38,934 bases of DNA from assembly GCA_016870275.1 (NCBI GenBank), contig VGBZ01000023.1:1-38934 (forward strand). The letters run 5' to 3'. Of the stretch, positions 1 through 38,934 are shown piece by piece. This stretch comes from Actinomycetota bacterium (lineage in GTDB: Bacteria; Actinomycetota; Acidimicrobiia; Acidimicrobiales; Microtrichaceae). Below the pieces are notes generated by a model, which had not been told where the DNA came from, ran no database searches, and saw only the letters and a program-made list of their open reading frames with translations. The position numbers were made by a program, and so were the translations under genes. Each line of letters begins with the position of its first letter. The stretch's first letter is position 1.

Positions 1-1210
1 CTCACTTGAGGATCTTGGTGACCCGGCCCGCACCCACGGTCCGGCCACCCTCACGGATCGCGAACCGCAGACCCTCGTCCATCGCGATCGGAGCGATGAG
101 TTCCACCGTCATCTCCGTGTTGTCCCCCGGCATGCACATCTCCGTGCCATCCGGCAACGACACCGACCCCGTCACATCCGTCGTCCGGAAATAGAACTGC
201 GGCCGATAGTTCGAGAAGAACGGCTTGTGACGGCCACCCTCCTCCTTGGTCAACACATACACATTCGCCTCGAAATCAGTGTGCGGCGTGATCGAACCCG
301 GCTTCGCCAACACCTGACCCCGCTGCACATCATCCTTGTCGATCCCACGCAGCAACGCACCGATGTTGTCCCCAGCCTGGCCCTCATCGAGCAGCTTCCG
401 GAACATCTCCACACCCGTACACGTCGTCTTCTGCGTCGCTTTCAACCCGATGATCTCAATCTCATCACCAGTGTGGATCACACCCTGCTCCACCTTCCCC
501 GTCACCACCGTCCCACGACCCGTGATCGTGAACACATCCTCGATCGGCATCAAGAACGGCTTGTCCAGATCACGCTCCGGCTCCGGCACATACTCATCCA
601 CCGCCGCCATCAGCGCCATCACCTGATCCTGCGCATCCGAATCACCCTCCAACGCCTTCAACGCAGACACCGGAATCACCGGACAATCATCACCATCGAA
701 CTCGTACTCCGAGAGCAACTCCCGAACCTCGAGCTCCACCAACTCCAACAACTCCTCATCATCGACCATGTCGACCTTGTTCAACGCCACCACGATCGCC
801 GGCACACCCACCTGACGCGCCAACACCACATGCTCACGCGTCTGCGGCATCGGCCCATCCGTCGCCGCCACCACCAGAATCGCCCCATCCACCTGAGCCG
901 CACCCGTGATCATGTTCTTGATGTAATCAGCGTGCCCCGGCATGTCCACATGCGCGTAATGACGGTTCCCCGTCTCATACTCCACATGCGACACATTGAT
1001 CGTGATCCCACGCTCCCGCTCCTCAGGAGCCTTGTCGATGTTCTCGAACTCCGTGAACGAGTTCCCAGGCACCCGATCCGCAAGCGTCTTCGTGATCGCC
1101 GCCGTGAGCGTCGTCTTCCCATGATCGATGTGACCCATCGTCCCCACATTCACGTGCGGCTTGTTCCGCTCGAACTTCTCCTTCGACATGGGAAACCCTT
1201 TCTTGGATGG
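1..1210 (-). repeat. Long direct repeat containing tuf, copy A
   Basis: Bases 1-1210 match 17161-18370 without any difference that I could find by eye. The match covers all of tuf plus 21 bp upstream of its ATG, then stops abruptly (CTCTGGACTC here, TGGCTTCGGG in the other copy). The left end may continue outside the window. Perfect identity including synonymous sites points to gene conversion or a very recent duplication. Confidence 0.93.
2..1189 (-). CDS. tuf: Elongation factor Tu, copy 1
   Basis: EF-Tu is the GTPase that carries aminoacyl-tRNA to the ribosomal A site. The 395-residue protein is full length and shows the GTP-binding motifs GHIDHGKT (19-26), DMPGH (82-86) and NKVD (137-140), followed by the two beta-barrel domains. 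It is the last gene of the str cluster, 70 bp after fusA, and the TGA stop is at 2-4. A purine-rich ribosome site (AAGAAAGGG) lies just before ATG. The protein is identical to the copy at 17162-18349. Codon use is unusual for this window: it prefers GTG, GCG, ACG, GGG, TTG, GAT and CAT, while fusA and the ribosomal genes prefer C-ending codons (GGC, ACC, ATC, GAC). Identification is certain. Confidence 0.98.
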
Positions 1211-5061: not shown

Positions 5062-8000
5062 TCAGGAATCGGAGTCTGCCGACTGGTCGCTCGACCCGGG
5101 GAACTCGATGACTTCAGCGACCCCTGCGGTGTCGATTGCGACCGGTTCGACCACGGCATCGGTGATGCCGGGATCGGTTCCGGTGTCAGCGAGCACTGCG
5201 ACGTCGTCGAGTTGCTCGGACTGCCGCTCGGCGAGCCACCGGGCCGGGTCGACCTCGTCGCCGCTGGAGTACTCATCCGGCAGGGTCGCTGGAACAAAGT
5301 CCGGAACGTACGCCCGGATCTCCTGGTAGCGCTCCATGCCGGTTCCGGCGGGGATGAGCTTGCCGATGATGATGTTCTCCTTGAGCCCGACCAGGTCGTC
5401 GGACTTGCCATCGATCGCCGCTTCGGTCAGCACCCGGGTGGTTTCCTGGAACGAGGCCGCAGAGAGCCACGACTCCGTCGCCAGTGACGCCTTGGTGATG
5501 CCCATGAGGACGGGACGACCCTCGGCCGGCTTCTTGCCCTCCTGCACCAACTGGCGGTTGCGCTCGTTGAACTCTCGCTGATCCCGGTTCTCGCCGGGAA
5601 GGAACTCCGAGTCACCCGACTCCTGGATGGCGACCCGGCGGGTCATCTGGCGAACGATCAGTTCGATGTGCTTGTCGTGGATCGACACGCCCTGATCGCG
5701 GTACACCCGCTGAACCTCGTCGACGAGGTACTGCTGAACCGCCCGCACTCCCTTGATGTCGAGAAGTTCCTTGGGGTCCCAGGCGCCCTCGATGAGCGGA
5801 TCACCGGCGATGATCTCCTGGCCGTCGGTCACGAGGAGCTTCTGCTCCTGCTCGATGGAATGGGACTGCTCGGTCCCATCGTCAGCGACGATCACGACGT
5901 TGCGACCGGTCACGGTGCCGGACTCATCGGCCTCGTCGATCCGCACCACACCGGAGGACGCAGCGAGGATCGCCTTGTTCTTCGGGGTCCGCGCCTCGAA
6001 CAACTCCACCACCCGGGGCAGACCGCCGGTGATGTCGGCGACGTTGGCGACGCCACCGGTGTGGAACGTCCGCATGGTCAACTGCGTGCCCGGCTCACCG
6101 ATTGACTGGGCGGCGATGACGCCGACGGCCTCACCGGGCTCGATGAGATAGCCGGTGGCCAACGACACGCCGTAGGAGGCCGCCGAGATACCGAACTCGC
6201 TCTCGTCGGTCAGCGGCGAGAGTACGCGCACCGAAGTCACCGACTCGTCGTCTCGGAGTGCTGCGAGCTCGTCGTCGCCGACGAGGGTTCCCCGCTCGAG
6301 GACCCGACCATCGGAGAGGGCCACGTCCTCGGCCAGCGACCGGCTGGCGAGGCGACTCTCGAGGTGGAAACGCTGGTCACCGCGGTCGGGACGCACGTCA
6401 TCGATCACGATGCTGCGGATCGGCCCGCCCTCGGCGAACGGATCCCGATCGTTGATGATGAGTTCCTGGGCCACGTCGACGAGGCGTCGCGTGAGGTAGC
6501 CGGAGTCGGCTGTCCGCAGCGCCGTGTCGACCAGACCCTTCCGGGCGCCCGGCGTGGCGATGAAGTACTCGAGCACCGAGAGGCCCTCTCGGAAGTTCGA
6601 CTTGATCGGGTGGGGAATCAGGTCGCCACGGGGGTTGGACACGAGCCCCCGCATCCCTGCGATCTGCTTGACCTGCGACATGCTGCCGCGGGCTCCCGAG
6701 CCGACCATCATCTCCACGGGGTTGAACTGGTCCTGGCTCATGGCCAGGCGAGTCGCCTCGGTGATCTCCTCGGTGGCCTTGGTCCACAGGTCGATCTCGA
6801 GCTGCTTGCGCTCGCTGTCGGCGATGATTCCCCGGGCGAACTGCTTCTCGTGCTTGTCCGCATCGCTCTCGAAGGGCGCCAGGATCTCGTACTTGTTCGA
6901 CGGGGTGTGGACGTCGGAGATCGCAATGGTCAGCCCCGACCGCATGGCGTACTCGAAGCAGAGCCCCTTGATGGCGTCGAGGGACTCCGAGGCCACGGCC
7001 TTGGGGAACTCGATGGCGAGCCGGTCGACGATGCGGCCCATGTCGCTCTTGCGGACCACCCCGTTGACGTAGGTGAAGCCTTCAGGGAGCGCCCGGTTGA
7101 ACAGGAGCCGCCCAGCGGTGGTGGAGTGGTACTGGGTCGCCGATCCGTTGGCCGGGGCGGCGATCAGGTCGGGGAACTCAGAGCCGCGGTACTGAATCGA
7201 AGCGTGCACGCTCAGAACGCCGGCGTCGAGGTCACGTTCGACCTGGTCGAGCCGACCGTAGGCCCGGCCGGCACCAGTGGCGTCGGCCACCTCGGAGGTG
7301 AGGTAGTACGCACCGATGATCATGTCCTGCGTGGGCGTGACGAGAGGCTTGCCGTGGGCGGGGCTGAGCATGTTGTTGGCGCTCAGCATGAGGACCCGAG
7401 CCTCGGCCTGGGCCTCGGCCGACAGCGGCAGGTGGACCGCCATCTGATCGCCGTCGAAATCGGCGTTGAAGGCCGTGCAGACCAGCGGGTGGATCTGAAT
7501 GGCCTTGCCCTCGACCAGCACAGGCTCGAAGGCCTGGATCCCGAGTCGGTGCAGCGTCGGTGCCCGGTTCAACAGGACGGGGTGCTCCTTGATGACCTCT
7601 TCGAGCACGTCCCAGACCAACGGGTGCCGACGTTCCACCATCCGCTTGGCCGACTTGATGTTCAGGGCGAGTTCGCGGTCGACGAGCGCCTTCATGACGA
7701 ACGGCTTGAAAAGCTCGAGTGCCATGAGCTTGGGGAGGCCGCACTGGTGCAGCTTGAGCGTCGGGCCGACCACGATGACCGAACGGCCCGAGTAGTCGAC
7801 TCGCTTGCCGAGCAGGTTCTGACGGAAGCGTCCCTGCTTGCCCTTGAGCATGTCGGAGAGAGACTTGAGCGGGCGGTTGCCCACCCCGCTCACGGGACGA
7901 CCACGACGGCCGTTGTCGAACAGTGCGTCGACGGCCTCCTGGAGCATCCGCTTCTCGTTGTTGACGATGATCTCCGGCGCACCGAGGTCGAGGAGCCGCT

Positions 8001-17160: not shown

Positions 17161-18370
17161 CTCACTTGAGGATCTTGGTGACCCGGCCCGCACCCACGGT
17201 CCGGCCACCCTCACGGATCGCGAACCGCAGACCCTCGTCCATCGCGATCGGAGCGATGAGTTCCACCGTCATCTCCGTGTTGTCCCCCGGCATGCACATC
17301 TCCGTGCCATCCGGCAACGACACCGACCCCGTCACATCCGTCGTCCGGAAATAGAACTGCGGCCGATAGTTCGAGAAGAACGGCTTGTGACGGCCACCCT
17401 CCTCCTTGGTCAACACATACACATTCGCCTCGAAATCAGTGTGCGGCGTGATCGAACCCGGCTTCGCCAACACCTGACCCCGCTGCACATCATCCTTGTC
17501 GATCCCACGCAGCAACGCACCGATGTTGTCCCCAGCCTGGCCCTCATCGAGCAGCTTCCGGAACATCTCCACACCCGTACACGTCGTCTTCTGCGTCGCT
17601 TTCAACCCGATGATCTCAATCTCATCACCAGTGTGGATCACACCCTGCTCCACCTTCCCCGTCACCACCGTCCCACGACCCGTGATCGTGAACACATCCT
17701 CGATCGGCATCAAGAACGGCTTGTCCAGATCACGCTCCGGCTCCGGCACATACTCATCCACCGCCGCCATCAGCGCCATCACCTGATCCTGCGCATCCGA
17801 ATCACCCTCCAACGCCTTCAACGCAGACACCGGAATCACCGGACAATCATCACCATCGAACTCGTACTCCGAGAGCAACTCCCGAACCTCGAGCTCCACC
17901 AACTCCAACAACTCCTCATCATCGACCATGTCGACCTTGTTCAACGCCACCACGATCGCCGGCACACCCACCTGACGCGCCAACACCACATGCTCACGCG
18001 TCTGCGGCATCGGCCCATCCGTCGCCGCCACCACCAGAATCGCCCCATCCACCTGAGCCGCACCCGTGATCATGTTCTTGATGTAATCAGCGTGCCCCGG
18101 CATGTCCACATGCGCGTAATGACGGTTCCCCGTCTCATACTCCACATGCGACACATTGATCGTGATCCCACGCTCCCGCTCCTCAGGAGCCTTGTCGATG
18201 TTCTCGAACTCCGTGAACGAGTTCCCAGGCACCCGATCCGCAAGCGTCTTCGTGATCGCCGCCGTGAGCGTCGTCTTCCCATGATCGATGTGACCCATCG
18301 TCCCCACATTCACGTGCGGCTTGTTCCGCTCGAACTTCTCCTTCGACATGGGAAACCCTTTCTTGGATGG
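17161..18370 (-). repeat. Long direct repeat containing tuf, copy B
   Basis: Partner of bases 1-1210, in the same orientation and 17160 bp away. Recombination between the two copies would delete or duplicate the rif-str block between them, so the pair is also a potential rearrangement hotspot. Confidence 0.93.
17162..18349 (-). CDS. tuf: Elongation factor Tu, copy 2
   Basis: Identical 395-residue protein to the gene at 2-1189, with the same GTPase motifs (GHIDHGKT 19-26, DMPGH 82-86, NKVD 137-140). This copy sits between tRNA-Met and tRNA-Trp, upstream of secE-nusG, the same setting as tufB in Escherichia coli. Its synonymous codons and the 21 bp before ATG are also identical to copy 1, so the two are kept the same by conversion or are a recent duplicate. 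It shares the G- and T-ending codon style that differs from all neighbours. Confidence 0.98.
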
Positions 18371-21417: not shown

Positions 21418-22257
21418 TCAGACCCAGGCGCCGGATCGCAGGCGAGCGATCCGTTCGGCCGCCGGCGGGTGGGTCGAGAACAGGTTGCCCAGGCTGCGAC
21501 CTCGCAACGGGTTGACGATGTAGGCCGAGGCCTCGGCGGGATTCACGTGCGACGGGATCCGCTGGGCCGATGCCTCGAGTGTCTGGAGTGCCCGGGCGAG
21601 CGGCTCACCGGTGCCGAGCAGGCGAGCCGCTGAGGCGTCCGCCTCGAACTCCCGGCTCCGACTGATGGCGGCCTGGATCAGGCCCGCAGCGAGCGGCGCC
21701 AGGATGATCATCAGCAGCGCCGCAAACGGGTTCTCGCGGTCATCGGACCGTCCACCGCCGAAGATCAACGCCCACTGGGCCATGTTCGCCAGGAACGTGA
21801 TGCCCATGGCGACCGCTGCGGCGACCGACCCAATGAGGATGTCGCGGTTGCGGACGTGGGCGAGCTCGTGAGCGAGCACCCCTTGGATCTGGTCCCAGTC
21901 GAGCGTCATCAGCAGGCCCTCGGTGACACACACTGCGGCGTTGGCCGGATTGCGACCAGTGGCGAAGGCGTTGGGCTGCTGCTCCGGCGAGACGTAGAGC
22001 CGGGGCACGGGCAGGTCGGCCCGTTCGCAGAGTTCGGAGATGATCCGGTGGTACTGCGGCATCTGCTCCGCTGTGACCTCCATGGCCCGGGCCGAGCGGA
22101 TCGCCAGACGATCCGAGAACCAGTACGACCCGCCGCAGAACACCAGCCCGATGAGCAGGCCGACGACGACGCCGCCCTGCCCCCAGAACGACCCGATGAA
22201 CATGCACAGCCCACCGAGGCCGGCGAGCAGAACGGCGGTCCTAGCGTTGTTACCCAT
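21418..22257 (-). CDS. htpX: Membrane zinc metalloprotease HtpX
   Basis: HtpX (M48 family) degrades misfolded membrane proteins. The 279-residue protein has two N-terminal membrane helices (about 7-24 and 27-45), the zinc motif HELAH at 130-134, the further ligand segment SREFEADASA (Glu203), and a second hydrophobic pair at about 143-165 and 178-198. Length and order match the family. ATG start at 22255-22257. It lies between the palindrome and a HAD phosphatase gene, 125 bp away. Confidence 0.94.
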   Translation of the reverse strand: MGNNARTAVLLAGLGGLCMFIGSFWGQGGVVVGLLIGLVFCGGSYWFSDRLAIRSARAMEVTAEQMPQYHRIISELCERADLPVPRLYVSPEQQPNAFATGRNPANAAVCVTEGLLMTLDWDQIQGVLAHELAHVRNRDILIGSVAAAVAMGITFLANMAQWALIFGGGRSDDRENPFAALLMIILAPLAAGLIQAAISRSREFEADASAARLLGTGEPLARALQTLEASAQRIPSHVNPAEASAYIVNPLRGRSLGNLFSTHPPAAERIARLRSGAWV

Positions 22258-22382: not shown

Positions 22383-22880
22383 TCACTCGTAGTAACCGGA
22401 GTGGATGTAGATGCACGGAACGCCCTGCGTGTGGAACATGTGGACGTTGCGCGGGTCGTCCTCGAATGCCAGTCGCAGGTCGTACTCCCGGCTCCGCAAC
22501 TCCGTCACCGTCCGCTGCTTGAAGCTCCGGGCCGCCATGTAGTCGCCGTACTCCCGCATGATGAGCAGGTCCCAGCGCAACTGGTAGCGGTCGAGCCAGC
22601 CCAGGGTCTGCGGGCGCACCCTGATCGGGCGGGCGGTGAGCAGCACCACCTGCAGGTCGGACTCGAGCACGTCGAGCAGTCGGGCGACCTCGGCGATCAG
22701 ATCGTCGTCACCACAGGCATGGAAGAACGCCTCCCAGTCGCGGAACGGGTACTCGAGGTAGTGCTGCCGGGTGCTCGCATCCGACAGCACGCCGTCCATG
22801 TCGAACACGACCGCAGCGGCCCCGGGCATGGGCTCGGTACGCCACAACCAGTTCTCGAACCGATGATCCTCGACGGGCAC
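22383..22880 (-). CDS. HAD-superfamily hydrolase, polynucleotide-kinase-phosphatase-like
   Basis: A phosphohydrolase of the HAD fold. With GTG at 22878-22880 the protein is 165 residues. Motif I is FDMDGVLSD (nucleophile Asp27, acid Asp29), motif II is VVLLTARP (Thr82), the motif III lysine is probably Lys121, and motif IV is AFEDDPRNV (Asp141, Asp142). The C-terminus NVHMFHTQGVPCIYIHSGYYE-like pattern resembles the phosphatase half of T4 polynucleotide kinase, so a nucleic-acid 3'-phosphate substrate is possible but unproven. The frame runs upstream into the lipoprotein gene, so the start is uncertain; ATG at 22829 is an alternative. Confidence 0.83.
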   Translation of the reverse strand: MPVEDHRFENWLWRTEPMPGAAAVVFDMDGVLSDASTRQHYLEYPFRDWEAFFHACGDDDLIAEVARLLDVLESDLQVVLLTARPIRVRPQTLGWLDRYQLRWDLLIMREYGDYMAARSFKQRTVTELRSREYDLRLAFEDDPRNVHMFHTQGVPCIYIHSGYYE

Positions 22881-22935
22881 GGCGTGCAGGCTACCGGGCT
22901 CGGGCCGGATGCCTCCACGACCGAGGCTGCGGCGC

Positions 22936-23406
22936 TCAGCTCCGGGCCGGACCAGCCGCAGGATTCTCCGAGACGATGGAGACCGCCGCATCGACGCCCA
23001 TCGAGCGGAGCTCGTCACGCACCACGAGCAATGCGCCCAGGTCGGCGACCTCGAAGCGGGCGACGTGCAGCCCCAAGCGGTCAGCGGAGAACACGATCTC
23101 TCCGCCGGAAGCGGTGACCGCCGCCAGGTCCGGGCCGGTGATCGCGCCGGTGGACTTGATCACCAGCTCGTCCGGGCTGACGGTGGCGGGATCGATCTCT
23201 GCCGGACCCGGGTCGAGGGGCTCGCCCTGGCGGCGTTCGGGAGTGGTCGGTTGCGCCCCGACGTCGACCGGCTCGGAATCTCCCGGGGGCGTCGTCGTCT
23301 CGTCCCCACAGGCTGCGAGTGCGAGGAACGGGAGGGCGAGGAGCATCGCTGCGATGCGCCCGACGGGGCGACCCCCCGACGCGTTGGTTCGGTCGCGTGC
23401 GTTCAT
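22936..23406 (-). CDS. Predicted lipoprotein with S8-propeptide-like tail
   Basis: Function unknown. The 156-residue product has a basic start, a hydrophobic stretch and the lipobox LAAC (Cys about 33), then a Pro/Glu/Thr-rich linker. The remainder (about 78-145: DELVIKS, LGLHVARFEV, LVVRDELRSMGVDAAVS) resembles the inhibitor-I9/subtilisin propeptide fold, but no protease domain follows. The ribosome site GGAGGTGA overlaps the stop of the VWA-like remnant 7 bp upstream, so it was probably co-transcribed with that gene when intact. Confidence 0.75.
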   Translation of the reverse strand: MNARDRTNASGGRPVGRIAAMLLALPFLALAACGDETTTPPGDSEPVDVGAQPTTPERRQGEPLDPGPAEIDPATVSPDELVIKSTGAITGPDLAAVTASGGEIVFSADRLGLHVARFEVADLGALLVVRDELRSMGVDAAVSIVSENPAAGPARS

Positions 23407-28021: not shown

Positions 28022-29536
28022 TCAGGGGCCGCCGACGGCGAGCGGCCCGTACTCGGTGACGTTGGTGATCAGGCCCGGGAGCACCCCGAGCACGAGTGTC
28101 ACGACCAGCGACAACACCACAGCGGCGCTCAGCGAGGCCGGCACCGGCACCGGGGCGACGTCGCCGTCAGGAGCGTCGTCGAACCACATCGCCTTGGCGA
28201 CCTTCAGGTAGTAGTACGCAGCAATCGCAGTGTTGACGGCCATGAAGATCGCCGTGACGAAGCCGAGGACCGTCTCGGCCTCCACCAGCACGGAGAACAC
28301 ACCGAACTTGGCGTACCAGCCGCCGAGCGGCGGGATGCCGATCAGCGACGCCAGGAACAACGTGAGTGCCACGGCCATCCCCGGCATGTAGGAGAAGAGG
28401 CCGCCGAAGGAGTCGATCTCCGCCGAGCGGGTCTTGCGGGCGACGGCGATCACGACGGCGAAGGCACCGAGGTTCATGGCGGCGTAGATGACCAGGTAGA
28501 TCACGATCGCCTGACGGGACTGGACGGGCAGTTCGTCGGCGACGACGAACGGAGCGAGCATGAATCCGGCCTGTGCGATGCCCGAGTAGGCGAGCATGCG
28601 GACGACGTTGGTCTGCCGCAGAGCGATCAGATTCCCGACGGTCATGGACAGGATCGACAGGACGAAGAACACCGGCTGGATCACATCCGGGCGGACGATG
28701 AAGCAGAAGTAGACGATCTGGATGAGGGCCACGAACCCGGCCGCCTTGGACGCCACGGCCAAGAACGCAGTCACGGGTGTGGGAGCACCCTCGTAGGTGT
28801 CGGGCGCCCACACGTGGAACGGCACCGCCGAGACCTTGAAGGCGAAGCCGACGATCGTGAGCAGGATGGCCAGTGTGATGACCGGGATGCCCTCGCTGCC
28901 GACCTCGACCAGACGGGCGGCGATGTTGTCGAGCCGGGTGGACCCACCCACGCCGTAGACGAGTGACAGCCCGTAGAGCAGTACCGCCGAGGCGAACACC
29001 CCCATCAGGTAGTACTTGAGTCCGGCCTCGTTGGACCGGACGTCGCCCTTGCGCCATCCGGCGAGCATGTACGCCGGAATCGACAGCAGCTCGAGCGCCA
29101 CGAAGATGCCGACGAGGTCGCGGCTCGACGCCATGACCACCATGCCCAGCACGCTGCAGGCGAGCAGCGAGTAGTACTCGCTCTCCCAGTAGTCGCCCTC
29201 GGCCATGTAGTTGGTCGACAGCAGCACCACGACGTAGGCCGAGAGCACGAAGAGCGCCTTGAGGATGAGCGACATCGAGTCGACGACGTAGGACCCGCCG
29301 AAGAGGACCCGGTCGCCGCCCTCGGCGGCCACGGCGATGATCGGGATGAGCGCCAGGATGAATCCGAGGTTCGCCACGGCCGGGATGGCTGCCCGGGCCC
29401 GATCGAGCTTGATCGAGTCGAGCAGTACGAGCACGACGAACAGTGCCACGAGGACCACTTCCGGTCCGAGCGCGAGCCAGTCGATCGTCGGGGCCGTGAA
29501 CGGACCCGGGAGCAACTGGGCGAACAACGACAGCAC
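28022..29536 (-). CDS. nuoN: Complex I subunit N
   Basis: Antiporter-like membrane subunit of respiratory complex I, thought to form one of the proton channels. The 504-residue protein has about 14 predicted helices and the typical segments LLSIPAYMLAGW, YLLMGVFASAVLLYG-like (YYLMGVFASAVLLYG) and FHVWAPDTYEGAPTPVTAF. The key Glu of ALELLSIP and the Lys of VSAVPFH-type helix are present. GTG start at 29534-29536 is 6 bp after nuoM. Confidence 0.95.
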   Translation of the reverse strand: MLSLFAQLLPGPFTAPTIDWLALGPEVVLVALFVVLVLLDSIKLDRARAAIPAVANLGFILALIPIIAVAAEGGDRVLFGGSYVVDSMSLILKALFVLSAYVVVLLSTNYMAEGDYWESEYYSLLACSVLGMVVMASSRDLVGIFVALELLSIPAYMLAGWRKGDVRSNEAGLKYYLMGVFASAVLLYGLSLVYGVGGSTRLDNIAARLVEVGSEGIPVITLAILLTIVGFAFKVSAVPFHVWAPDTYEGAPTPVTAFLAVASKAAGFVALIQIVYFCFIVRPDVIQPVFFVLSILSMTVGNLIALRQTNVVRMLAYSGIAQAGFMLAPFVVADELPVQSRQAIVIYLVIYAAMNLGAFAVVIAVARKTRSAEIDSFGGLFSYMPGMAVALTLFLASLIGIPPLGGWYAKFGVFSVLVEAETVLGFVTAIFMAVNTAIAAYYYLKVAKAMWFDDAPDGDVAPVPVPASLSAAVVLSLVVTLVLGVLPGLITNVTEYGPLAVGGP

Positions 29537-29542
29537 CGTTGA

Positions 29543-31072
29543 TCAGCCCCCGACCGACGCAGCGATCGACTCGACCGCAGGGTTGACGACGTTGAAGATG
29601 AGACCCGGCACGAAGCCCAGCACGACGATGAGGATGAGCATCGGGGTCCAGGCGATCCACTCGGGCCGTTCGACGTCGTGGATGTGGTCGTCGCCGGCGA
29701 ACTCCTCGGTCGGCGTGCCGAACGCAGTCCGCTGGTACAGCCACAGCAGGTAGCCGGCGGCGAGCACGGTCCCGATCGCTGCGATGATCATCAGCGTGCG
29801 GAACAGCGGCACGCTGAGCCCGACCGCCGGGTTGTACGCCGCCAGGATCGCCGGGAACTCACCCCAGAAACCCGCCAGGCCGGGCAGCCCGAGTGACGCC
29901 ATGACCGACAGGCCCAGAATCCAACCCATCTTGGGCGCCTGGACCAGCAGTCCACCGAGTCGCTTGATCTCCAGAGTGTGGTACCGCTCCTTGATCGACC
30001 CGGCCAGGAAGAACAACATCCCGGTGATCAGGCCGTGGGCCACCATGCCGAACACCGCGGCGTTGAACCCGAGGTTGCTGAGCGTGGCAATCGCGAGCAT
30101 GACATAGCCCATGTGAGCCACCGATGAGAACGCAATGAGGCGCTTCATGTCGGTCTGGGCCAGACAGGCCAGTGCGCCGTAGATGATGCCGATCGTGGCG
30201 AGCACGCCGATGACCGGCGCCCACTGGCGGGCACCGATCGGCAGCAGCGGGATGGCGATGCGCAGGAACCCGTAGGTGCCCAGCTTCAACAGCACCGCTG
30301 CGAGGATCACCGAACCCTGCGTCGGCGCCTGGGTGTGGGCGTCCGGAAGCCATGTGTGGAACGGGAACATGGGGACCTTGATCCCGAACCCGAGGAACAT
30401 GCCGCCGAAGATGAGGATCTGAGCGGTCCTCGTCAGACCGGCGCCCCCGAACTCACGGAGTTCCGGGATGGAGAACGTCTGCTCGACCGACAGGTAGCTG
30501 ATCGCAATGAACGCCACGATCATCAGCGCCGAGCCGAACAGCGTGTAGAGGAAAAATTTGATCGATGCGTACTTTCGCTCGGGTCCACCCCAGACACCGA
30601 TCATGAAAAACATCGGCAGGAGCACGACCTCGAAGAACACGAAGAACAAAATGAGGTCCTGAGCGAGGAACGAGCCGATCATCCCCGTCTCGAGGACGAG
30701 CATGAGGATGAAGAACGCCTTCGGGTTGCCCGGCGCTGGAACGTGGTTCCAGGAGTAGATGAATACCAACGGCATGATCCCGACAGTGAGGATCAGCAGC
30801 GGCAGCGACATCCCGTCGAGCCCCATGATGAACCCCGAGTTGATGACCGAGATCCACTCGTAGTCGACGAAGAACTGCAACGACCCGGAGGCGTCGTAGT
30901 CGAAGTTGGCCATCAAGAGGATGCCGAACACGAGTGTCACGACCGACGTCACCAGCGCCAGCAGCTTGTGGGTGTCCTCGGATTCCTTGGGCACCAACAA
31001 CATCACGAGGGCGCCGACGAGCGGCACGAACGTGATGAGGATCAGGCCCCAGTCGTTCAGGAACTCTTTCAT
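29543..31072 (-). CDS. nuoM: Complex I subunit M
   Basis: Antiporter-like proton-channel subunit, 509 residues with about 14 helices. Signatures are GLDGMSLPLLILT, FFVFFEVVLLPMFFMIG (channel Glu in FFEVVLLP), FHTWLPDAHTQAPT and the conserved GYVMLAIATL region. ATG start at 31070-31072, 23 bp after nuoL and 6 bp before nuoN. Normal length and order. Confidence 0.96.
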   Translation of the reverse strand: MKEFLNDWGLILITFVPLVGALVMLLVPKESEDTHKLLALVTSVVTLVFGILLMANFDYDASGSLQFFVDYEWISVINSGFIMGLDGMSLPLLILTVGIMPLVFIYSWNHVPAPGNPKAFFILMLVLETGMIGSFLAQDLILFFVFFEVVLLPMFFMIGVWGGPERKYASIKFFLYTLFGSALMIVAFIAISYLSVEQTFSIPELREFGGAGLTRTAQILIFGGMFLGFGIKVPMFPFHTWLPDAHTQAPTQGSVILAAVLLKLGTYGFLRIAIPLLPIGARQWAPVIGVLATIGIIYGALACLAQTDMKRLIAFSSVAHMGYVMLAIATLSNLGFNAAVFGMVAHGLITGMLFFLAGSIKERYHTLEIKRLGGLLVQAPKMGWILGLSVMASLGLPGLAGFWGEFPAILAAYNPAVGLSVPLFRTLMIIAAIGTVLAAGYLLWLYQRTAFGTPTEEFAGDDHIHDVERPEWIAWTPMLILIVVLGFVPGLIFNVVNPAVESIAASVGG

Positions 31073-33737: not shown

Positions 33738-34325
33738 TCAGTCCCTCCTGGCCAGGACGATCGCGCCGATGAGGGCTCCGGTGAGCAGGACCGACACCAC
33801 TTCGAACGGAATCAGGTAGTCGGCGAAGATCTCGTTCGCGAGCGCCTGGGTCCGGCCGTTGCCCGAGCCGCCGATCTGAACCGAGGTGCCGGTGACACCG
33901 CTGACCTGCGGCAGGTCGTAGGCGGCGAAGTCGAGGCGGTCGGTGCCCCAGGACCGGGTCAACGAGAAGCCGATGACCACCAGCAGGAGGACACCGACGA
34001 CCGCACCGATCCAGCGCTGGTTGTTGTCGAGGTCGTCGGACTTCCCGAGGGGGGCTCTGGTCAACATGATGCCGAACAGGAACAACACGATGATGGCGCC
34101 GATGTAGACGAGCAGTTGGGTGAGCGCCAGGAACTCAGCCTGGAGAATCAGGTAGACGACGGCGTTGCCGCCGAGCACGACCACGAGCCACAGGGCGGCG
34201 TGCACGATGTTGCGGGTTGTCACCACTCGGATGGCCGCCACGACCATGAGCACGGCGAGCACCGCAAAGGCCACGTTCCCGGGAACGTCGAACGTGGTCT
34301 CCGTTGCGAGCACCAGTCCGCTCAC
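33738..34325 (-). CDS. nuoJ: Complex I subunit J
   Basis: Membrane subunit J, 195 residues with about five helices. Conserved segments are [37 protein letters not shown] (helix 3 with its pi-bulge region) and the C-terminal [20 protein letters not shown] at 34323-34325 overlaps the nuoI stop by four bases (GTGA), implying coupled translation. The frame is open further upstream inside nuoI but has no family similarity there. Confidence 0.94.
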
Positions 34326-34894
34326 CGCGGCACCTTCTTGACCTTGACCTCCGAGCCGGCCTCGAGCGCCTCGAAGTCGGGGACGGTCTCGAACCACTCG
34401 CCGAGGCGTTCCTTGTCGTGGAGCAGATCGGCGATCCGGGGTTCGGAGTATTCGTACTCGGGGCTCCAGAACAGCGCCTCGAACGGGCACACCTCCACGC
34501 AGATGCCGCAGTACATGCACAGCGAGTAGTCGATGTCGAACCGGTCGAGGGCGTTCACCTGACGGGGCTTGCCACCCTCGCGGCGTGGCGGTGCGAGCGT
34601 CTTGTGCGCCTCGATGTAGATGCACCAGTCCGGGCACTCACGGGCGCACAGCATGCACGCCGTGCAGTTGTCCTCGACGAGCGTGATGACGCCACGGGCC
34701 CGGGGGGCGGGCTCCTCCTTCTCGTGGGGGTACTGCACGGTGGCTGCACCACGAGAGGGAGCCGGTGGCCGGAGCAGGCCGTCGGGGAACATGGTCTCCT
34801 TGGCCGTGCGGAGCGTCACCCCGAGACCCTTGAGGACACCGGGGAGTTGCGGCTTGGGGAGCTTCGGCCGGGGAGACGACGGGGTGTCAGACAT
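34322..34894 (-). CDS. nuoI: Complex I subunit I, two 4Fe-4S clusters
   Basis: Carries clusters N6a and N6b between the peripheral arm and N2. The 190-residue protein has the two motifs [12 protein letters not shown] and [12 protein letters not shown], each followed by the fourth cysteine in CP. The Pro-rich N-terminus is longer than usual. ATG at 34892-34894 overlaps the nuoH TGA by one base. Confidence 0.96.
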
Positions 34895-35934
34895 CAGAAC
34901 GCCACCTTGAACACGGCGGTCACGAGGATGTTCGCCAGTGCGATCGGAATGAGGACCTTCCAAGCGAGCTTCTGCAGTTGGTCCTCACGGAAACGGGGGA
35001 ACGAGAAGCGGACCCAGAACACGACGCCGACGAGCAGCACGGCCTTGGTGGCGACCACCAGCGGGCCGACGACATTCATGACACCGGCGGACAGGCCCCA
35101 ACTGGTGGGCAGCGCCCAGCCGCCCAGGAAGAGCGTCGACGCCACGGCGGCGAAGGCCACGGCGGTGGCGAACTCGGAGATGAAGTAGACGAGGAACCGG
35201 ATACCGGAGTACTCCACCTGGTAGCCCGCCACCAGCTCGGACTCGGCGATCGGCATGTCGAACGGGGTCTGGGTGAGCTCGGCCTGCACGGCGATCATGA
35301 ACACGGCGAAGGCGACGAACTGCGTGAGGACGTAGGGGTTGCCGATCCCGGAGAACCCGAAGATCTCACCGCCCGCCTGCGCAGCGACGATGTCCTGCAG
35401 GTTGAGCGAGCCGGCCATGATCACGACGCCGAGCACGGCGAGGACCATGGGGAGCTCGTAGGCGATCAACTGGCCGCCGGCGCGCAACGCCCCCATGAGC
35501 GCGTACTTGTTGGCCGACGCCCATCCGGCCATGAGGATGCCGAGCACCGACAGCGCCGAGACGGCGAGCACGTAGTAGACGCCGGTGCCCAGGTTGGCGA
35601 TCACCAGGTCGGGGCCGGCGGGGATGACGACGAACATGAGGAACGTCGAACTGAGCACGACCGCCGGGGCGAGTCCGAACACCAGCCGATCGCTGTCCTC
35701 GGTGTGGATGTCCTCCTTCTGCAACCACTTGCCGACCTCGGCGAGCAACTGCAGGGAACCGTAGGGGCCGGCCTCCATCGGGCCGAGGCGACTCTGCATG
35801 AACGACACGAACTTGAACAGGTACAGGTAGACGACCCCGCCGGTCAGCAGGAGGACCGCCACCAGTCCGGCGACGACCCGGATCAGGGTCGACTGCCAGT
35901 AGGCGAGCTCGATTCCGAGGACCGCCGCACTCAC
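34894..35934 (-). CDS. nuoH: Complex I subunit H
   Basis: Membrane subunit at the junction with the peripheral arm, forming part of the quinone chamber. The 346-residue protein has about 8-9 helices and the conserved [55 protein letters not shown] and YSGIRF segments. GTG at 35932-35934 overlaps the nuoD stop by four bases (GTGA). The frame is open 67 codons further upstream, but the GTG gives the normal N-terminus. No nuoE, nuoF or nuoG lies between nuoD and nuoH. Confidence 0.95.
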
Positions 35935-37103
35935 CGGTCGATGTCCCCGAGGATGAAGTAGAGCGAGGCGAGGATCGTCACGATGTCGGGAACGTAGACA
36001 CCGCGGAGCAGCCACGGGGTGATGGAGATGTTGTTGAAGCTCGCCGAGCGGATCTTCAGCCGGAACGGCGTGAGGTCGCCCTGGCTGACCACGTAGTAGC
36101 CCATCTCGCCGAGCGGGTTCTCCGTGGAGATCCACGCCTCGCCGGCGGGAACCTTGATGATGCGGGGAACCTTGGCCATGATCGGGCCGCTGGGCACGCC
36201 GTCGGCGAGCTGGTCGATGATCCGGGAGGCCTCCCGGACCTCCTGCAGTCGCACCCAGAACCGGGCGAAGGAATCACCGTCCGGGTGGGTCCAGACCTTC
36301 CAGTCGACCTCTGGGTAGGCCAGCCCGATGCAGTTGTCCCGGCGGAGGTCCCAATCGATACCGGACGCACGGGCGTTGGCACCGGAGAGCCCGTACTGCA
36401 GCGCCACGTCGGGCGGGATGATGCCGATGCCCCGGGTCCGCTGCTGGAAGACCTCGGATCCCATGAGCAGGTCCTCGATCTCGTCGCAGAACGAACGGAC
36501 CTTCTCCATCACGGCCTTGGTGTCCTCGAGCCAACCCTTGGGCAGGTCGTCCTTGACGCCGCCGATCCGGTCGAAGTTGGGATGGAACCGGCCTCCGGTC
36601 ACCCGTTCGATCTGGTCGAGCACATACTCACGGTCACGGAACGCAAAGAACACCGGCGTGATGGCCCCGAGCTGCACACCCATGTCGCCGAGGAACAGGA
36701 TCAGGTTCGCAATCCGGGACATCTCGAAGAGGATCGTCCGGATCCACATGGCCCGAGGCGGGGCCTCGACCTCCATGAGTCGCTCGGCAGCGAGGATGAA
36801 CGGCACCTCGTTGGCGAAACTCCCCAACCAGTCGATGCGGTTCACGAGCGTGGTGACCTGCGCGTAGGTGCGGACCTCGGCGATCTTCTCGTAGCCGCGG
36901 TGCATGTAGCCGGCGACCGGCTCGGCGGCGATGACCTGCTCGCCGTCGAGGCGGGCGACGATACGCAGCGTCCCGTGTGTGGCGGGGTGCTGCGGCCCGA
37001 TGTTGAGGGTCATGCCCTCGGTCTCGAGCTCCACGTTGACCCGAGCGTCCGCAGCACGCGCCGTGATGTACTGCAGCTTCTGGCGATCGGTCACTGCGGT
37101 CAC
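35931..37103 (-). CDS. nuoD: Complex I subunit D (49-kDa homologue)
   Basis: Quinone-site subunit that meets cluster N2. The 390-residue protein has NIGPQHPATHGTLRI and the conserved block GYMHRGYEKIAEVRTY. Arg69 in this HRG aligns with the arginine dimethylated by NDUFAF7 in eukaryotes (Yarrowia Arg121), and the second conserved arginine is 20 residues later in NRIDW (Arg89). The C-terminus [10 protein letters not shown] is intact. GTG start at 37101-37103 overlaps the nuoC stop by four bases. The overlapping gene downstream is nuoH. Confidence 0.96.
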   Translation of the reverse strand: MTAVTDRQKLQYITARAADARVNVELETEGMTLNIGPQHPATHGTLRIVARLDGEQVIAAEPVAGYMHRGYEKIAEVRTYAQVTTLVNRIDWLGSFANEVPFILAAERLMEVEAPPRAMWIRTILFEMSRIANLILFLGDMGVQLGAITPVFFAFRDREYVLDQIERVTGGRFHPNFDRIGGVKDDLPKGWLEDTKAVMEKVRSFCDEIEDLLMGSEVFQQRTRGIGIIPPDVALQYGLSGANARASGIDWDLRRDNCIGLAYPEVDWKVWTHPDGDSFARFWVRLQEVREASRIIDQLADGVPSGPIMAKVPRIIKVPAGEAWISTENPLGEMGYYVVSQGDLTPFRLKIRSASFNNISITPWLLRGVYVPDIVTILASLYFILGDIDR

Positions 37104-37858
37104 GACTCAGCCTCCTCGCTGGTGGTGCCACTGCCGTCGGCATCTCCGGCAGCGTCGCCGGCGTCGTCCTCGCCGGGCATCGGTTCGACGTCGACGATCC
37201 CCGGCCACGGCTTCACCATGCGGGCCAGTAGCGGGAACCGCTTGCGCATCGGGTGGCCCTCGAAGTCCGACGGCAGGTACATGTGCCGCAGGCCGGGGTG
37301 ACCGGCGAAGGTGACTCCGAACATCTCCCACGCCTCACGCTCGTGCCAGTCGGCCCCGGCGTAGACCGGGACCCACGAGTCGATCGTCAGGCTGTCGTCG
37401 ACGTCGGCCTTGAGCGTGACACCCCAGAACCCGCCGGGGGTCCCGACGTCGGCCACACGGGCGAGCAGCTGGAACTGCGTCTCCCCACCGGCGACGCCGT
37501 GGGCCAACTCCGTGCTGGGCGGCGCAGGCTCCTCACCGGCGAGTCGAGCGAGCTCGAGATCGACCGAAGCGTCCATGGACCGGCCGTAGGGCGACGGGAG
37601 CCAGTCGATCACCGACAGGAAGCAGAAGTAGCGCGCTCCGAGTGCGTTGCGCGCGACCTCGGCGGCGTTGCGCCAGGCATCGCTGCGGACCCGGACCCAC
37701 ACGTCCTGTCCGGGCTGCACCTCGGCGTCGACCACGGCGTCACCGAGATGCTCCCGGAAGGACTCGACGATGACGTTGCGGTTCTCGTCGACGGGCGCGG
37801 CCGCAGGCTCCTCGGCGTCGCCTGCGGGATCGGCGGTGTCGGTCTGCTCGTCGGCCAC
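37100..37858 (-). CDS. nuoC: Complex I subunit C (30-kDa homologue)
   Basis: Peripheral-arm scaffold subunit, separate from nuoD (fused in some bacteria). The 252-residue protein has the C-terminal signature ADWHEREAWEMFGVTFAGHP followed by LRHMYLPSDFEGHPMRKRFPL. Both ends are acidic low-complexity extensions (Asp, Glu, Ala rich). GTG start at 37856-37858, 3 bp after nuoB; the 3' end overlaps nuoD by four bases. Confidence 0.95.
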   Translation of the reverse strand: MADEQTDTADPAGDAEEPAAAPVDENRNVIVESFREHLGDAVVDAEVQPGQDVWVRVRSDAWRNAAEVARNALGARYFCFLSVIDWLPSPYGRSMDASVDLELARLAGEEPAPPSTELAHGVAGGETQFQLLARVADVGTPGGFWGVTLKADVDDSLTIDSWVPVYAGADWHEREAWEMFGVTFAGHPGLRHMYLPSDFEGHPMRKRFPLLARMVKPWPGIVDVEPMPGEDDAGDAAGDADGSGTTSEEAES

Positions 37859-37861
37859 CCG

Positions 37862-38368
37862 TCACTCCACCACGATCGGCTCGCCGGTCCAGCGAGCCGC
37901 CATGTCCTCGTTCTGGATGCGCTCCTGGAGGAGCACCACGCCCTCGAGCAACGCCTCAGGACGGGGCGGACAGCCGGGCACGTAGACGTCGACGGGGATG
38001 ATCTGGTCGATGCCCTTGGTCACCGAGTAGCTGTCCCAGTACGGGCCCCCACAGTTGGCACACGATCCCATGGAGATCACGTACTTCGGGTCCGGCATCT
38101 GCTCCCAGAGGCGTCGGATGGCGGGAGCCATCTTGTCGGTCACGGTTCCCGAGATCACGACGAGGTCGGCCTGGCGGGGGCTGGCGGGCAGCGGGATGAC
38201 CCCGAGCCGCATGACGTCGTAGCGGGGAGAGCCGAACGCAGCGCCCATCTCGATGGCGCAGCACGCCAGGCCCCACTGGTACACCCACAGCGAGTACTTG
38301 CGCGAGAGGTTGAGGAGCTTCGTGAGCGGAGCGGGCATCTTGCCGCTCTCGACGAGTCCTAGGCCCAC
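37862..38368 (-). CDS. nuoB: Complex I subunit B, cluster N2
   Basis: Carries the terminal 4Fe-4S cluster N2, which passes electrons to quinone. With GTG at 38366-38368 the protein is 168 residues. The N2 ligands are Cys36-Cys37 (LACCAIEM), Cys103 (MGSCANCGG) and Cys133 (VPGCPPRPE). The start overlaps the end of nuoA by 10 bases and has the ribosome site AAGGGGG upstream; ATG at 38338 is an alternative. Codon use is normal for the window. Confidence 0.95.
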
Positions 38369-38736
38369 TTGAGCACCCCCTTGCGCCAGGCGTAGACGAG
38401 GCCGAGGAGCAGGATGAAGATGAACAGGGTCATCTCGATCAGCCCGAACCAGCCGAACACCTCGAGCTGGGTCGCCCACGGGAAGATGAACACGGCTTCG
38501 ACGTCGAACATCACGAACAACAGGGCGAAGATGTAGTAGCGGACCTGGGTCTGGGACCACATGTCGCCGATCGGGTCCACCCCGGACTCGTACGCGATGT
38601 ACTTCTGCGCCTGCCGACGGTCCGGCCGGATCAGCCACGCGATGAACAACAGCAGGCCCACGAGGACGAACCCCAGCGAGCCGAAGATGCCGACCGTGAG
38701 GTAGTCGCGGAGGAAAGCGCTCAGCGGATTGGACAT
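38359..38736 (-). CDS. nuoA: Complex I subunit A
   Basis: Small membrane subunit near the quinone site, first gene of the operon. The 125-residue protein has three helices and the conserved loop [23 protein letters not shown] followed by [18 protein letters not shown], with the loop Cys of many homologues replaced by Ser or Val. ATG start at 38734-38736. Confidence 0.95.
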
Positions 38737-38869: not shown

Positions 38870-38934
38870 GTGGCAGACGACGTGATCAGATTCTCCGAGC
38901 CCGACGTTGGTGAAGATGAGGTGGCGGCCGCAGG
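38870..38934 (+). CDS. Start of a DegT/DnrJ/EryC1/StrS aminotransferase, cut by the window
   Basis: Only 21 full codons are present: VADDVIRFSEPDVGEDEVAA. The pattern IRFSEPDVGEDEVAA is typical of the N-terminus of PLP-dependent sugar aminotransferases, which make amino sugars for cell-surface polysaccharides or natural products. GTG at 38870 or GTG at 38882 could be the start. Divergent from nuoA. The call rests on a short stretch. Confidence 0.55.
   Translation, partial: MADDVIRFSEPDVGEDEVAAA

What the first reader, a model, noticed from the sequence alone, without database searches (positions are those of the whole stretch)
35931..35934. Complex I operon without nuoE, nuoF and nuoG
nuoD and nuoH overlap by four bases (GTGA), so the NADH-oxidising module normally found between them in actinobacteria is missing from the operon, not merely displaced by an insertion. 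The remaining 11 genes match the composition of complexes that take electrons from ferredoxin or another donor. Either the genes are elsewhere or this organism's complex I does not use NADH directly.
Basis: partly seen in the sequence, partly recalled or inferred. Interest (0 to 1): 0.55.

Follow-up and report, generated by a model that had tools for sequence, protein, structure and literature searches.

The report
Second complex I lacking NADH module
This actinobacterium carries two versions of the respiratory proton pump complex I, and the one seen here lacks the NADH-reading part and has an unusual quinone site and its own likely helper methyltransferase, so it probably runs on another electron donor; that such second copies exist was already known.

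Summary
In detail: nuoD and nuoH overlap in GTGA at 35931-35934 and the operon is nuoABCDHIJKLMN, 11 genes. The organism-level inference is wrong: contig C27 of the same genome has a second operon, nuoA to nuoM with nuoE, nuoF, nuoG, and the start of nuoN. Truncated second nuo clusters are in print for Streptomyces and Ca. Actinomarinales. Not found in my paper searches is what marks this clade ('nuo2'): (1) the 'strictly conserved' quinone-binding Tyr of NuoD (Thermus Tyr87) is Trp in all 65 nuo2-type NuoD examined and Tyr in the 38 others; (2) NuoI has the short spacing of ferredoxin-fed NDH-1 before cluster N6a (9 residues in 53/53; 14 in 32/34 nuo1 NuoI); (3) NuoD2 carries the Arg that NDUFAF7 dimethylates in human mitochondria and NuoB2 a Thr (nuo1 has the reverse, Thermus-type pair), and a MidA/NDUFAF7-family gene follows nuoN2 here and co-occurs with nuoD2 (122/127 against 1/22 genomes). 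Best reading: an N-module-less, proton-pumping quinone reductase fed by a small low-potential carrier, with a rebuilt quinone site. The donor is not identified; PF01855 ferredoxin oxidoreductases were not found in this genome.

The parts
38359..38736 (-). nuoA2 (125 aa, ATG)
   Evidence: PF00507; PRK07756 NuoA below cut-off; start read
37862..38338 (-). nuoB2; ATG at 38336-38338 is the likely start (the 163-residue reading used began 15 bases upstream at a GTC). Four N2-cluster Cys present
   Evidence: PRK06411/TIGR01957 above cut-off; CC...C...C pattern
37100..37858 (-). nuoC2
   Evidence: PF00329
35931..37103 (-). nuoD2 (390 aa, GTG)
   Evidence: PF00346; PRK06075 above cut-off
36828..36830 (-). 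TGG codon, NuoD2 Trp92 = Thermus Nqo4 Tyr87 (quinone ligand)
   Evidence: HMMER alignment; W in 65/65 nuo2-type NuoD and 80/80 named loci; codon read
36897..36899 (-). CGC codon, NuoD2 Arg69 = bovine 49-kDa Arg-85 (dimethylated)
   Evidence: R in 65/65 nuo2, T in 22/22 nuo1; HRGXE context
36672..36674 (-). CAG codon, NuoD2 Gln144 = Thermus Asp139 position
   Evidence: E 35 / Q 30 in nuo2; D 30, E 6, N 2 in others
35931..35934 (-). nuoD stop / nuoH start overlap GTGA
34894..35934 (-). nuoH2
   Evidence: PF00146
34322..34894 (-). nuoI2 (ATG at 34892-34894), two 4Fe-4S motifs
   Evidence: TIGR01971 below cut-off; Fer4 families; start read
34664..34693 (-). NuoI2 [10 protein letters not shown]: short spacing before the N6a cluster
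33738..34325 (-). nuoJ2 (start approximate)
   Evidence: PF00499
33437..33733 (-). nuoK2
   Evidence: PF00420
31096..33426 (-). nuoL2
   Evidence: TIGR01974 above cut-off
29543..31072 (-). nuoM2
   Evidence: TIGR01972 above cut-off
28022..29536 (-). nuoN2
   Evidence: PF00361
26881..28008 (-). MidA/NDUFAF7-family methyltransferase gene, 13 bases after nuoN2
   Evidence: PF02636; PDB 5ztz NDUFAF7 homologue E 1.8e-14; no NCBIfam hit

Best explanation
The window holds 'nuo2', a second, N-module-less complex I (NuoABCDHIJKLMN) that the organism keeps beside a complex I of NADH type. Electrons enter at NuoI2 cluster N6a from a small low-potential carrier (most likely ferredoxin), pass N6b and N2, and reduce a quinone (presumably menaquinone), driving the conserved antiporter-type pump. 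Its quinone site departs from the standard one: the conserved Tyr of NuoD is Trp, the neighbouring Asp is Glu/Gln, and NuoH has lost the Arg of the ERK motif and the first Glu of the PEAE motif. Around N2 it is of the mitochondrial type (Arg from NuoD, Thr from NuoB), and the MidA/NDUFAF7-like enzyme of the operon is predicted to dimethylate NuoD2 Arg69 during assembly. Shown: gene content, residue patterns, co-occurrence. Inferred: donor, acceptor, methylation, proton pumping.
For: No E, F or G hit between D and H in 40 of 40 class loci. NuoI2: 9 residues from the RxxG glycine to the first N6a Cys in 53/53, against 14 in 32/34 nuo1 NuoI; chloroplast and cyanobacterial NdhI, fed by ferredoxin (PMC7021789, PMC6992706), have the same 9. 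Both NuoI2 4Fe-4S motifs in 53/53. Columns conserved within both groups but different between nuo1 and nuo2: I 13/37, B 15/59, D 12/79, H 5/39, A 2/15, against C 1/13, J 1/14, M 4/82, L 2/82, N 1/46, K 0/17: the change sits mostly at the electron-entry and quinone end. Of 58 charged residues invariant in nuo1 NuoK, L, M, N, 48 are kept in nuo2 (my count). Trp in 65/65, one side of a branch, SH-aLRT 90. MidA (PF02636): 122/127 nuoD2+ genomes against 1/22 nuoD2-; next to nuoN2 in 27 of 40 loci; within 5 kb of the lone nuoD2 in 9 of 10 loci where nuoD2 stands apart, all nine over the PF02636 cut-off. NuoD2 Arg69/NuoB2 Thr70 (65/65, 55/55) against NuoD1 Thr/NuoB1 Arg (22/22, 22/22) matches the published Thermus/Yarrowia switch (PMC8042128).
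Against: The donor is not found: no PF01855 in this genome, and across the class PF01855 is not tied to nuoD2 (113/127 against 17/22, p = 0.16). No ferredoxin gene was searched for. A non-Trp NuoI from a locus without a nuoF hit (L219) has the same short spacing and others of that kind have quite different ones, so the spacing is not a sure mark of a ferredoxin donor. The hairpin between the NuoI clusters, where NdhI binds ferredoxin with Lys residues, is only mildly more basic (median 7 against 4 K/R; net charge 0 against -1). Ten of the 58 charged positions of K, L, M, N are not kept. The NuoD Arg is not special to nuo2: 15 of the 16 other Tyr-type NuoD have it too. Loss of the Tyr could also mean loss of ordinary quinone reduction. 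MidA and nuoD2 mostly lie in one cluster, so some co-losses could be single deletions or missing contigs; five nuoD2+ genomes show no MidA; the Fisher test is not corrected for kinship. No expression or biochemistry is available.
Confidence: 0.6

Rival explanations
1. F420H2-fed complex: an FpoF/FrhB-like protein encoded elsewhere docks on NuoI2 and passes electrons from F420H2, as in the methanogen Fpo enzyme. Use of F420 was suggested in print for the truncated cluster of Ca. Actinomarinales (PMC7771536).
For: This genome has one PF04432 gene on C1 with an N-terminal 4Fe-4S dicluster domain, hit by FrhB and FpoF models below cut-off. 124 of 127 nuoD2+ genomes have PF01855 or PF04432 (my count).
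Against: PF04432 is if anything commoner without nuoD2 (19/22 against 74/127, p = 0.016). All 8 genomes of family f22 (about 1 Mb) in the sample have nuoD2 but none has PF04432. The gene is not next to nuo2.
Confidence: 0.17
2. Nuo2 borrows the NADH module (NuoEFG) made from the nuo1 operon, giving two NADH-type isoenzymes.
For: nuo1 and nuo2 are often neighbours on one strand (nuoN1 end within 4 kb of nuoA2 in 21 of 40 class loci and in 10 of the 14 other loci with A2, B2 and D2 close together), so they may be co-expressed.
Against: NuoI has the highest share of diverged conserved columns, and the stretch before N6a is five residues shorter with GRH changed to GVI. That this stretch faces NuoG is my inference; no interface was modelled.
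Confidence: 0.08
3. Nuo2 subunits are alternative parts of one mixed complex I rather than a separate enzyme (proposed for Streptomyces NuoL2/NuoM2, PMC3765725, PMC8388888).
For: The Streptomyces nuo2 lists in print do not name nuoC2, and nuoD2 stands apart.
Against: In this class the set including C2 and D2 is kept as one block (A2, B2, C2, D2, H2, I2, J2 in 40 of 40 loci); NuoD2/NuoB2 and NuoD1/NuoB1 carry reciprocal Arg/Thr pairs, which argues for matched partners.
Confidence: 0.07
4. The complex does not reduce quinone at the usual deep site; it reduces another acceptor, or runs backwards (quinol and proton-motive force to low-potential carrier).
For: Tyr87 to Trp, Asp139 to Glu/Gln, NuoH Arg to hydrophobic/His and PEAE Glu to Val/Ile.
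Against: The His38 position is His in 65/65, the N2 Cys pattern is present in the sequences shown, most charged pump residues are kept; the rest of the tunnel was not examined.
Confidence: 0.12

Closest known systems
Streptomyces nuo2 cluster (nuoA2, B2, D2, H2-N2)
   Same: Second nuo set without EFG in an actinobacterium that also has the 14-gene operon (PMC3765725, PMC8388888, passages read). Large genomes of the sample that look like Streptomyces by size and lone nuoD2 (L205, L227; unnamed, so this is a guess) have the same Trp and a MidA gene beside nuoD2.
   Different: There nuoD2 is away from the operon; here it is in place and nuoC2 is present.
Truncated nuo paralogue of Ca. Actinomarinales (PMC7771536, passages read)
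   Same: 11-gene nuo without EFG beside a complete one; probably the same class as the window (inferred).
   Different: There heliorhodopsin and iron genes lie between the two; the passages read do not mention Trp or MidA.
[quoted passage not shown])
   Same: nuoABCDHIJKLMN, proposed ferredoxin feed, donor not proven.
   Different: Strict anaerobe; its NuoD residue was not examined here.
Cyanobacterial/chloroplast NDH-1
   Same: 11 core subunits, short NuoI/NdhI spacing before N6a.
   Different: NdhH keeps the Tyr in the two alignments shown; the NDH-1-specific extra subunits were not searched for.
Mitochondrial complex I with NDUFAF7
   Same: HRGXE Arg in the 49-kDa subunit, Thr in the 20-kDa subunit, PF02636-type methyltransferase.
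   Different: No N-module here; Trp in place of Tyr144 (Yarrowia numbering).

Membership tests
11-subunit (N-module-less) complex I-like enzymes | nuoABCDHIJKLMN without E, F, G in the operon | tested here: met
11-subunit (N-module-less) complex I-like enzymes | electron donor other than NADH | not testable with these tools
   only indirect: NuoI2 spacing
14-subunit NADH:quinone oxidoreductase | NuoE, NuoF, NuoG belonging to this operon | tested here: not met
   the only PF01512 protein found in the genome lies in the other nuo operon
Quinone-reducing complex I (all kinds) | conserved quinone-binding Tyr of NuoD/NDUFS2 ('strictly conserved', PMC8119997) | tested here: not met
   Trp
Quinone-reducing complex I (all kinds) | partner His of NuoD (Thermus His38) and the four N2 Cys of NuoB | tested here: met
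   His 65/65; tandem CC 55/55 and CC-C-C pattern in the 4 nuo2 sequences shown
Membrane-bound hydrogenases (Mbh, Fhl) | Ni-Fe ligand CxxC pairs in the NuoD-like subunit (recalled) | tested here: not met
   NuoD2 sequence has no CxxC (read); Fhl and Mbh chains are the two weakest of 54 PDB hits
F420H2 dehydrogenase (Fpo) | FpoF partner | tested here: inconclusive
   an FpoF/FrhB-like gene exists but below model cut-offs, unlinked and not co-distributed
NDUFAF7/MidA methyltransferases | PF02636 domain | tested here: met
   E 4.9e-34, PDB 5ztz NDUFAF7 homologue E 1.8e-14
NDUFAF7/MidA methyltransferases | symmetric dimethylation of the HRGXE Arg of the 49-kDa subunit | not testable with these tools
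   target Arg present in 65/65 NuoD2; needs mass spectrometry

The most novel reading that the evidence does not exclude
Nuo2 is a widespread actinobacterial class of complex I that pumps protons without the tyrosine held essential for quinone binding and reduction: a Trp-based quinone site, with N2 tuned by a dedicated MidA-catalysed dimethyl-Arg, fed by a soluble low-potential carrier. If it is an active quinone reductase, nature has already made the Tyr-to-Trp exchange and rebuilt the site around it, and tyrosinate-based coupling models cannot be universal.
Probability: 0.35. Interest if true: 0.75.

Novelty: new variant of a known kind. Interest (0 to 1): 0.55.

Why it matters
How quinone reduction drives complex I is still argued over, and models described in the passages I read use proton transfer from this Tyr, or its anionic form held by the nearby Arg (PMC8119997, PMC8042128). 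A clade in which the Tyr is Trp, in cells that also make a Tyr-bearing complex, is a ready-made natural experiment. The NuoD2-MidA pairing gives a simple bacterial test of what the NDUFAF7 methylation does, a step needed for assembly of human complex I (PMC3829151).

Tried and rejected
Own-genome lack of NADH-type complex I: rejected. Ferredoxin oxidoreductase as fixed partner: PF01855 not found here and not associated. FpoF/FrhB-like partner as fixed: not associated. nuo2 directly downstream of nuo1 in this genome: I first took the C27 end (inside nuoN1) and the window end for neighbours, then dropped it: they share no end sequence, the 198 bases upstream of nuoA2 do not, by eye, read as the end of NuoN, and no NuoM1 hit lies in the 5.1-6.4 kb held upstream of nuoA2 in the close relatives L084-L086 (NuoN1 itself was searched only with its first 112 residues); in G136 (one contig) nuo1 and nuo2 lie about 60 kb apart. 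An earlier count said 10 of 17 other tandem loci; the recount is 10 of 14. Paper searches for a report of the Trp or of a NuoD2-MidA pairing; none of the listings (the top rows only) or passages I saw reported either, but two key papers (Moparthi and Hagerhall 2011; Spero 2015) are not held and were not read. Hits of other loci to the long ORF L078|780 were not counted as MidA.

Rows dropped and choices: NuoD frames of 300 aa or less; subunit rows under 0.7 of the reference length, B and C of nuo1 excepted. The 40 class loci were chosen among genomes with a nuo2-type NuoD. nuoD2+ or - in the 149 genomes was set by hand (best E at or below about 1e-99, or a partial hit of at least 55% identity, counts as +: 127 and 22); the negatives that searches did not list (36 and 6) were taken by subtraction. 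Exceptions: G024, G038, G092, G135, G147 have nuoD2 and no MidA hit; G091 lacks nuoD2 but has MidA, and is a 470-contig assembly. G050 is the one genome of 149 without a PF01512 hit.

Full report
WHAT IS THERE. The minus strand from 38736 down to 28022 encodes NuoA, B, C, D, H, I, J, K, L, M and N. nuoD and nuoH share GTGA at 35931-35934, and nuoE, nuoF, nuoG are not in the operon. A PF02636 gene (MidA/NDUFAF7 family) follows nuoN after 13 bases, then an acetyl-CoA-synthetase-like gene. The contig C23 is the window itself and ends about 200 bases upstream of nuoA.

THE GENOME. G000 has 3.2 Mb in 137 contigs, 96% complete. It has one PF01512 (NuoF) hit, two NuoD and two NuoH loci. The second set, on C27, reads nuoA-B-C-D-E-F-G-H-I-J-K-L-M and the start of nuoN, where that contig ends. 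Named relatives of NuoD2 at 84-97% identity are MAGs titled uncultured actinobacterium, Actinomycetota or Microthrixaceae (one is titled Bifidobacterium breve, surely a mislabel) and the record Actinobacteria bacterium IMCC26207; from 81% down most titles say Acidimicrobiales, Acidimicrobiia or their families. I take the class to be Acidimicrobiia.

HOW WIDESPREAD. In 149 genomes drawn from the class, 127 have a nuo2-type NuoD (my reading) and 148 a PF01512 protein. In 40 loci that I chose among the 127, A2, B2, C2, D2, H2, I2 and J2 are present in 40, K2, L2, M2 in 39, N2 in 36 (some stretches are cut), with no E, F or G hit between D2 and H2 in 40 of 40. In 21 of the 40 the end of nuoN1 lies within 4 kb upstream of nuoA2 on the same strand, and in 10 of 14 loci outside the class with A2, B2 and D2 close together; L074 shows nuo1 whole and nuo2 up to J2 in one row. 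In the window's own genus this neighbourhood was not seen: no NuoM1 hit in the 5.1-6.4 kb upstream of nuoA2 in L084-L086, and in G136, a single contig, the two operons are about 60 kb apart.

THE QUINONE SITE. HMMER aligns NuoD2 Trp92 with Tyr87 of Thermus Nqo4, the residue that a review calls strictly conserved and that binds the quinone head group (PMC8119997, passages). Of 103 NuoD proteins over 300 aa from the class and phylum loci, 65 have Trp and 38 Tyr. All Trp rows form one side of a branch (SH-aLRT 90; quick tree, no bootstrap) and need one change. They include lone nuoD2 genes of large genomes. All 80 named loci also have Trp (some are the same genomes, and all are close relatives). 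The Tyr rows are the 22 nuo1 NuoD of this class and 16 others, of which 13 have no nuoF hit within 4 kb; so Trp marks this clade, not the lack of the NADH module as such. His38 is His in all 103. The Asp139 position is Glu (35) or Gln (30) in the clade, Asp (30), Glu (6) or Asn (2) elsewhere. In NuoH the ERK-motif Arg is Leu, Phe, His, Met or Val in 54 of 54 nuo2 rows (Arg in 20 of 20 nuo1 rows with a letter there, 5 gaps) and the first Glu of PEAE is Val or Ile in 51 of 54 (Glu in 25 of 25 nuo1). The motif names ERK and PEAE and their place in the quinone tunnel are recalled. By contrast, few columns conserved in both groups differ in NuoK, L, M and N (0/17, 2/82, 4/82, 1/46).

WHERE ELECTRONS ENTER. 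NuoI2 keeps both 4Fe-4S motifs (53/53). Before the first it is five residues shorter than nuo1 NuoI (9 against 14 residues from glycine to cysteine; 53/53 and 32/34) and has the spacing of chloroplast and cyanobacterial NdhI, which take electrons from ferredoxin (PMC7021789, PMC6992706, passages). I read this as loss of the docking surface for NuoG and an open N6a; no structure was modelled. It does not name the donor. PF01855 oxidoreductases were not found in this genome and are not tied to nuoD2. One FpoF/FrhB-like gene exists, but that family is not tied to nuoD2 either. Three nuoD2+ genomes (G009, G067, G147) show neither family.

THE METHYLTRANSFERASE. NuoD2 has Arg69 in the HRGXE motif (65/65) where NuoD1 has Thr (22/22); 15 of the 16 other Tyr-type NuoD have Arg as well. 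NuoB2 has Thr70 (55/55) where NuoB1 has Arg (22/22) (T65 if counted from the ATG at 38338). This is the intersubunit Arg/Thr switch described between Yarrowia and Thermus (PMC8042128, passages), here inside one genome. In mitochondria that NuoD Arg is symmetrically dimethylated (PMC3750175, passages), in humans by NDUFAF7 (PMC3829151, start of abstract in listing and passages). PF02636 occurs in 123 of 149 genomes: 122 of 127 with nuoD2 and 1 of 22 without (Fisher p = 7e-20, not corrected for kinship). PF01855 (p = 0.16) and PF04432 (p = 0.016 in the opposite sense) serve as comparisons. The gene follows nuoN2 in 27 of 40 loci, and in 9 of 10 loci where nuoD2 stands alone a PF02636 gene lies within about 5 kb (the tenth, L231, is cut short near nuoD2). 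The simplest reading is that MidA serves NuoD2 and not NuoD1.

WHAT IS KNOWN. A second, EFG-less nuo set is in print for Streptomyces (PMC3765725, PMC8388888, passages) and for Ca. Actinomarinales, where F420 was suggested as donor (PMC7771536, passages); 11-subunit enzymes with unproven donors are known elsewhere (PMC11238625, passages). I found no report of the Trp, the NuoI spacing in this clade or the NuoD2-MidA pairing in the listings or in the passages that I read; two central papers were not held.

VERDICT. The clade's rebuilt quinone site and its likely dedicated methyltransferase are the interesting part.

Noticed in passing
window 2-1189 and 17162-18349: Two tuf (EF-Tu) genes identical over all 1188 bases, one at the contig edge; the assembly may have broken at this repeat.
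   Followed up: partly
window 38870-38934 (+): Start of a divergent plus-strand frame reading VADDVIRFSEPDVGEDEVAAA, reminiscent of a DegT-type aminotransferase N-terminus (recalled, no search made); in G136 (L060) the ORF upstream of nuoA2 looks to me like a polysaccharide chain-length/kinase protein.
   Followed up: no
L237 (G000 C1:126000-140000) 6232-7398 +: FpoF/FrhB-like protein with an N-terminal 4Fe-4S dicluster domain in an actinobacterium without any PF01855 hit.
   Followed up: partly
L195, L205, L206, L207, L208, L209, L210, L227, L233: Lone nuoD2 genes with no other nuo gene hit on the stretch held, each with a PF02636 (MidA-family) gene within about 5 kb.
   Followed up: partly
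G050: Only genome of the 149-genome sample without a NuoF hit; it has nuoD2 (95% complete); could be an assembly gap.
   Followed up: no
window 22383-23018 (-): Protein with a HAD/PNKP-type phosphatase domain (PF25109) beside an HtpX-like protease gene at 21418-22257.
   Followed up: no
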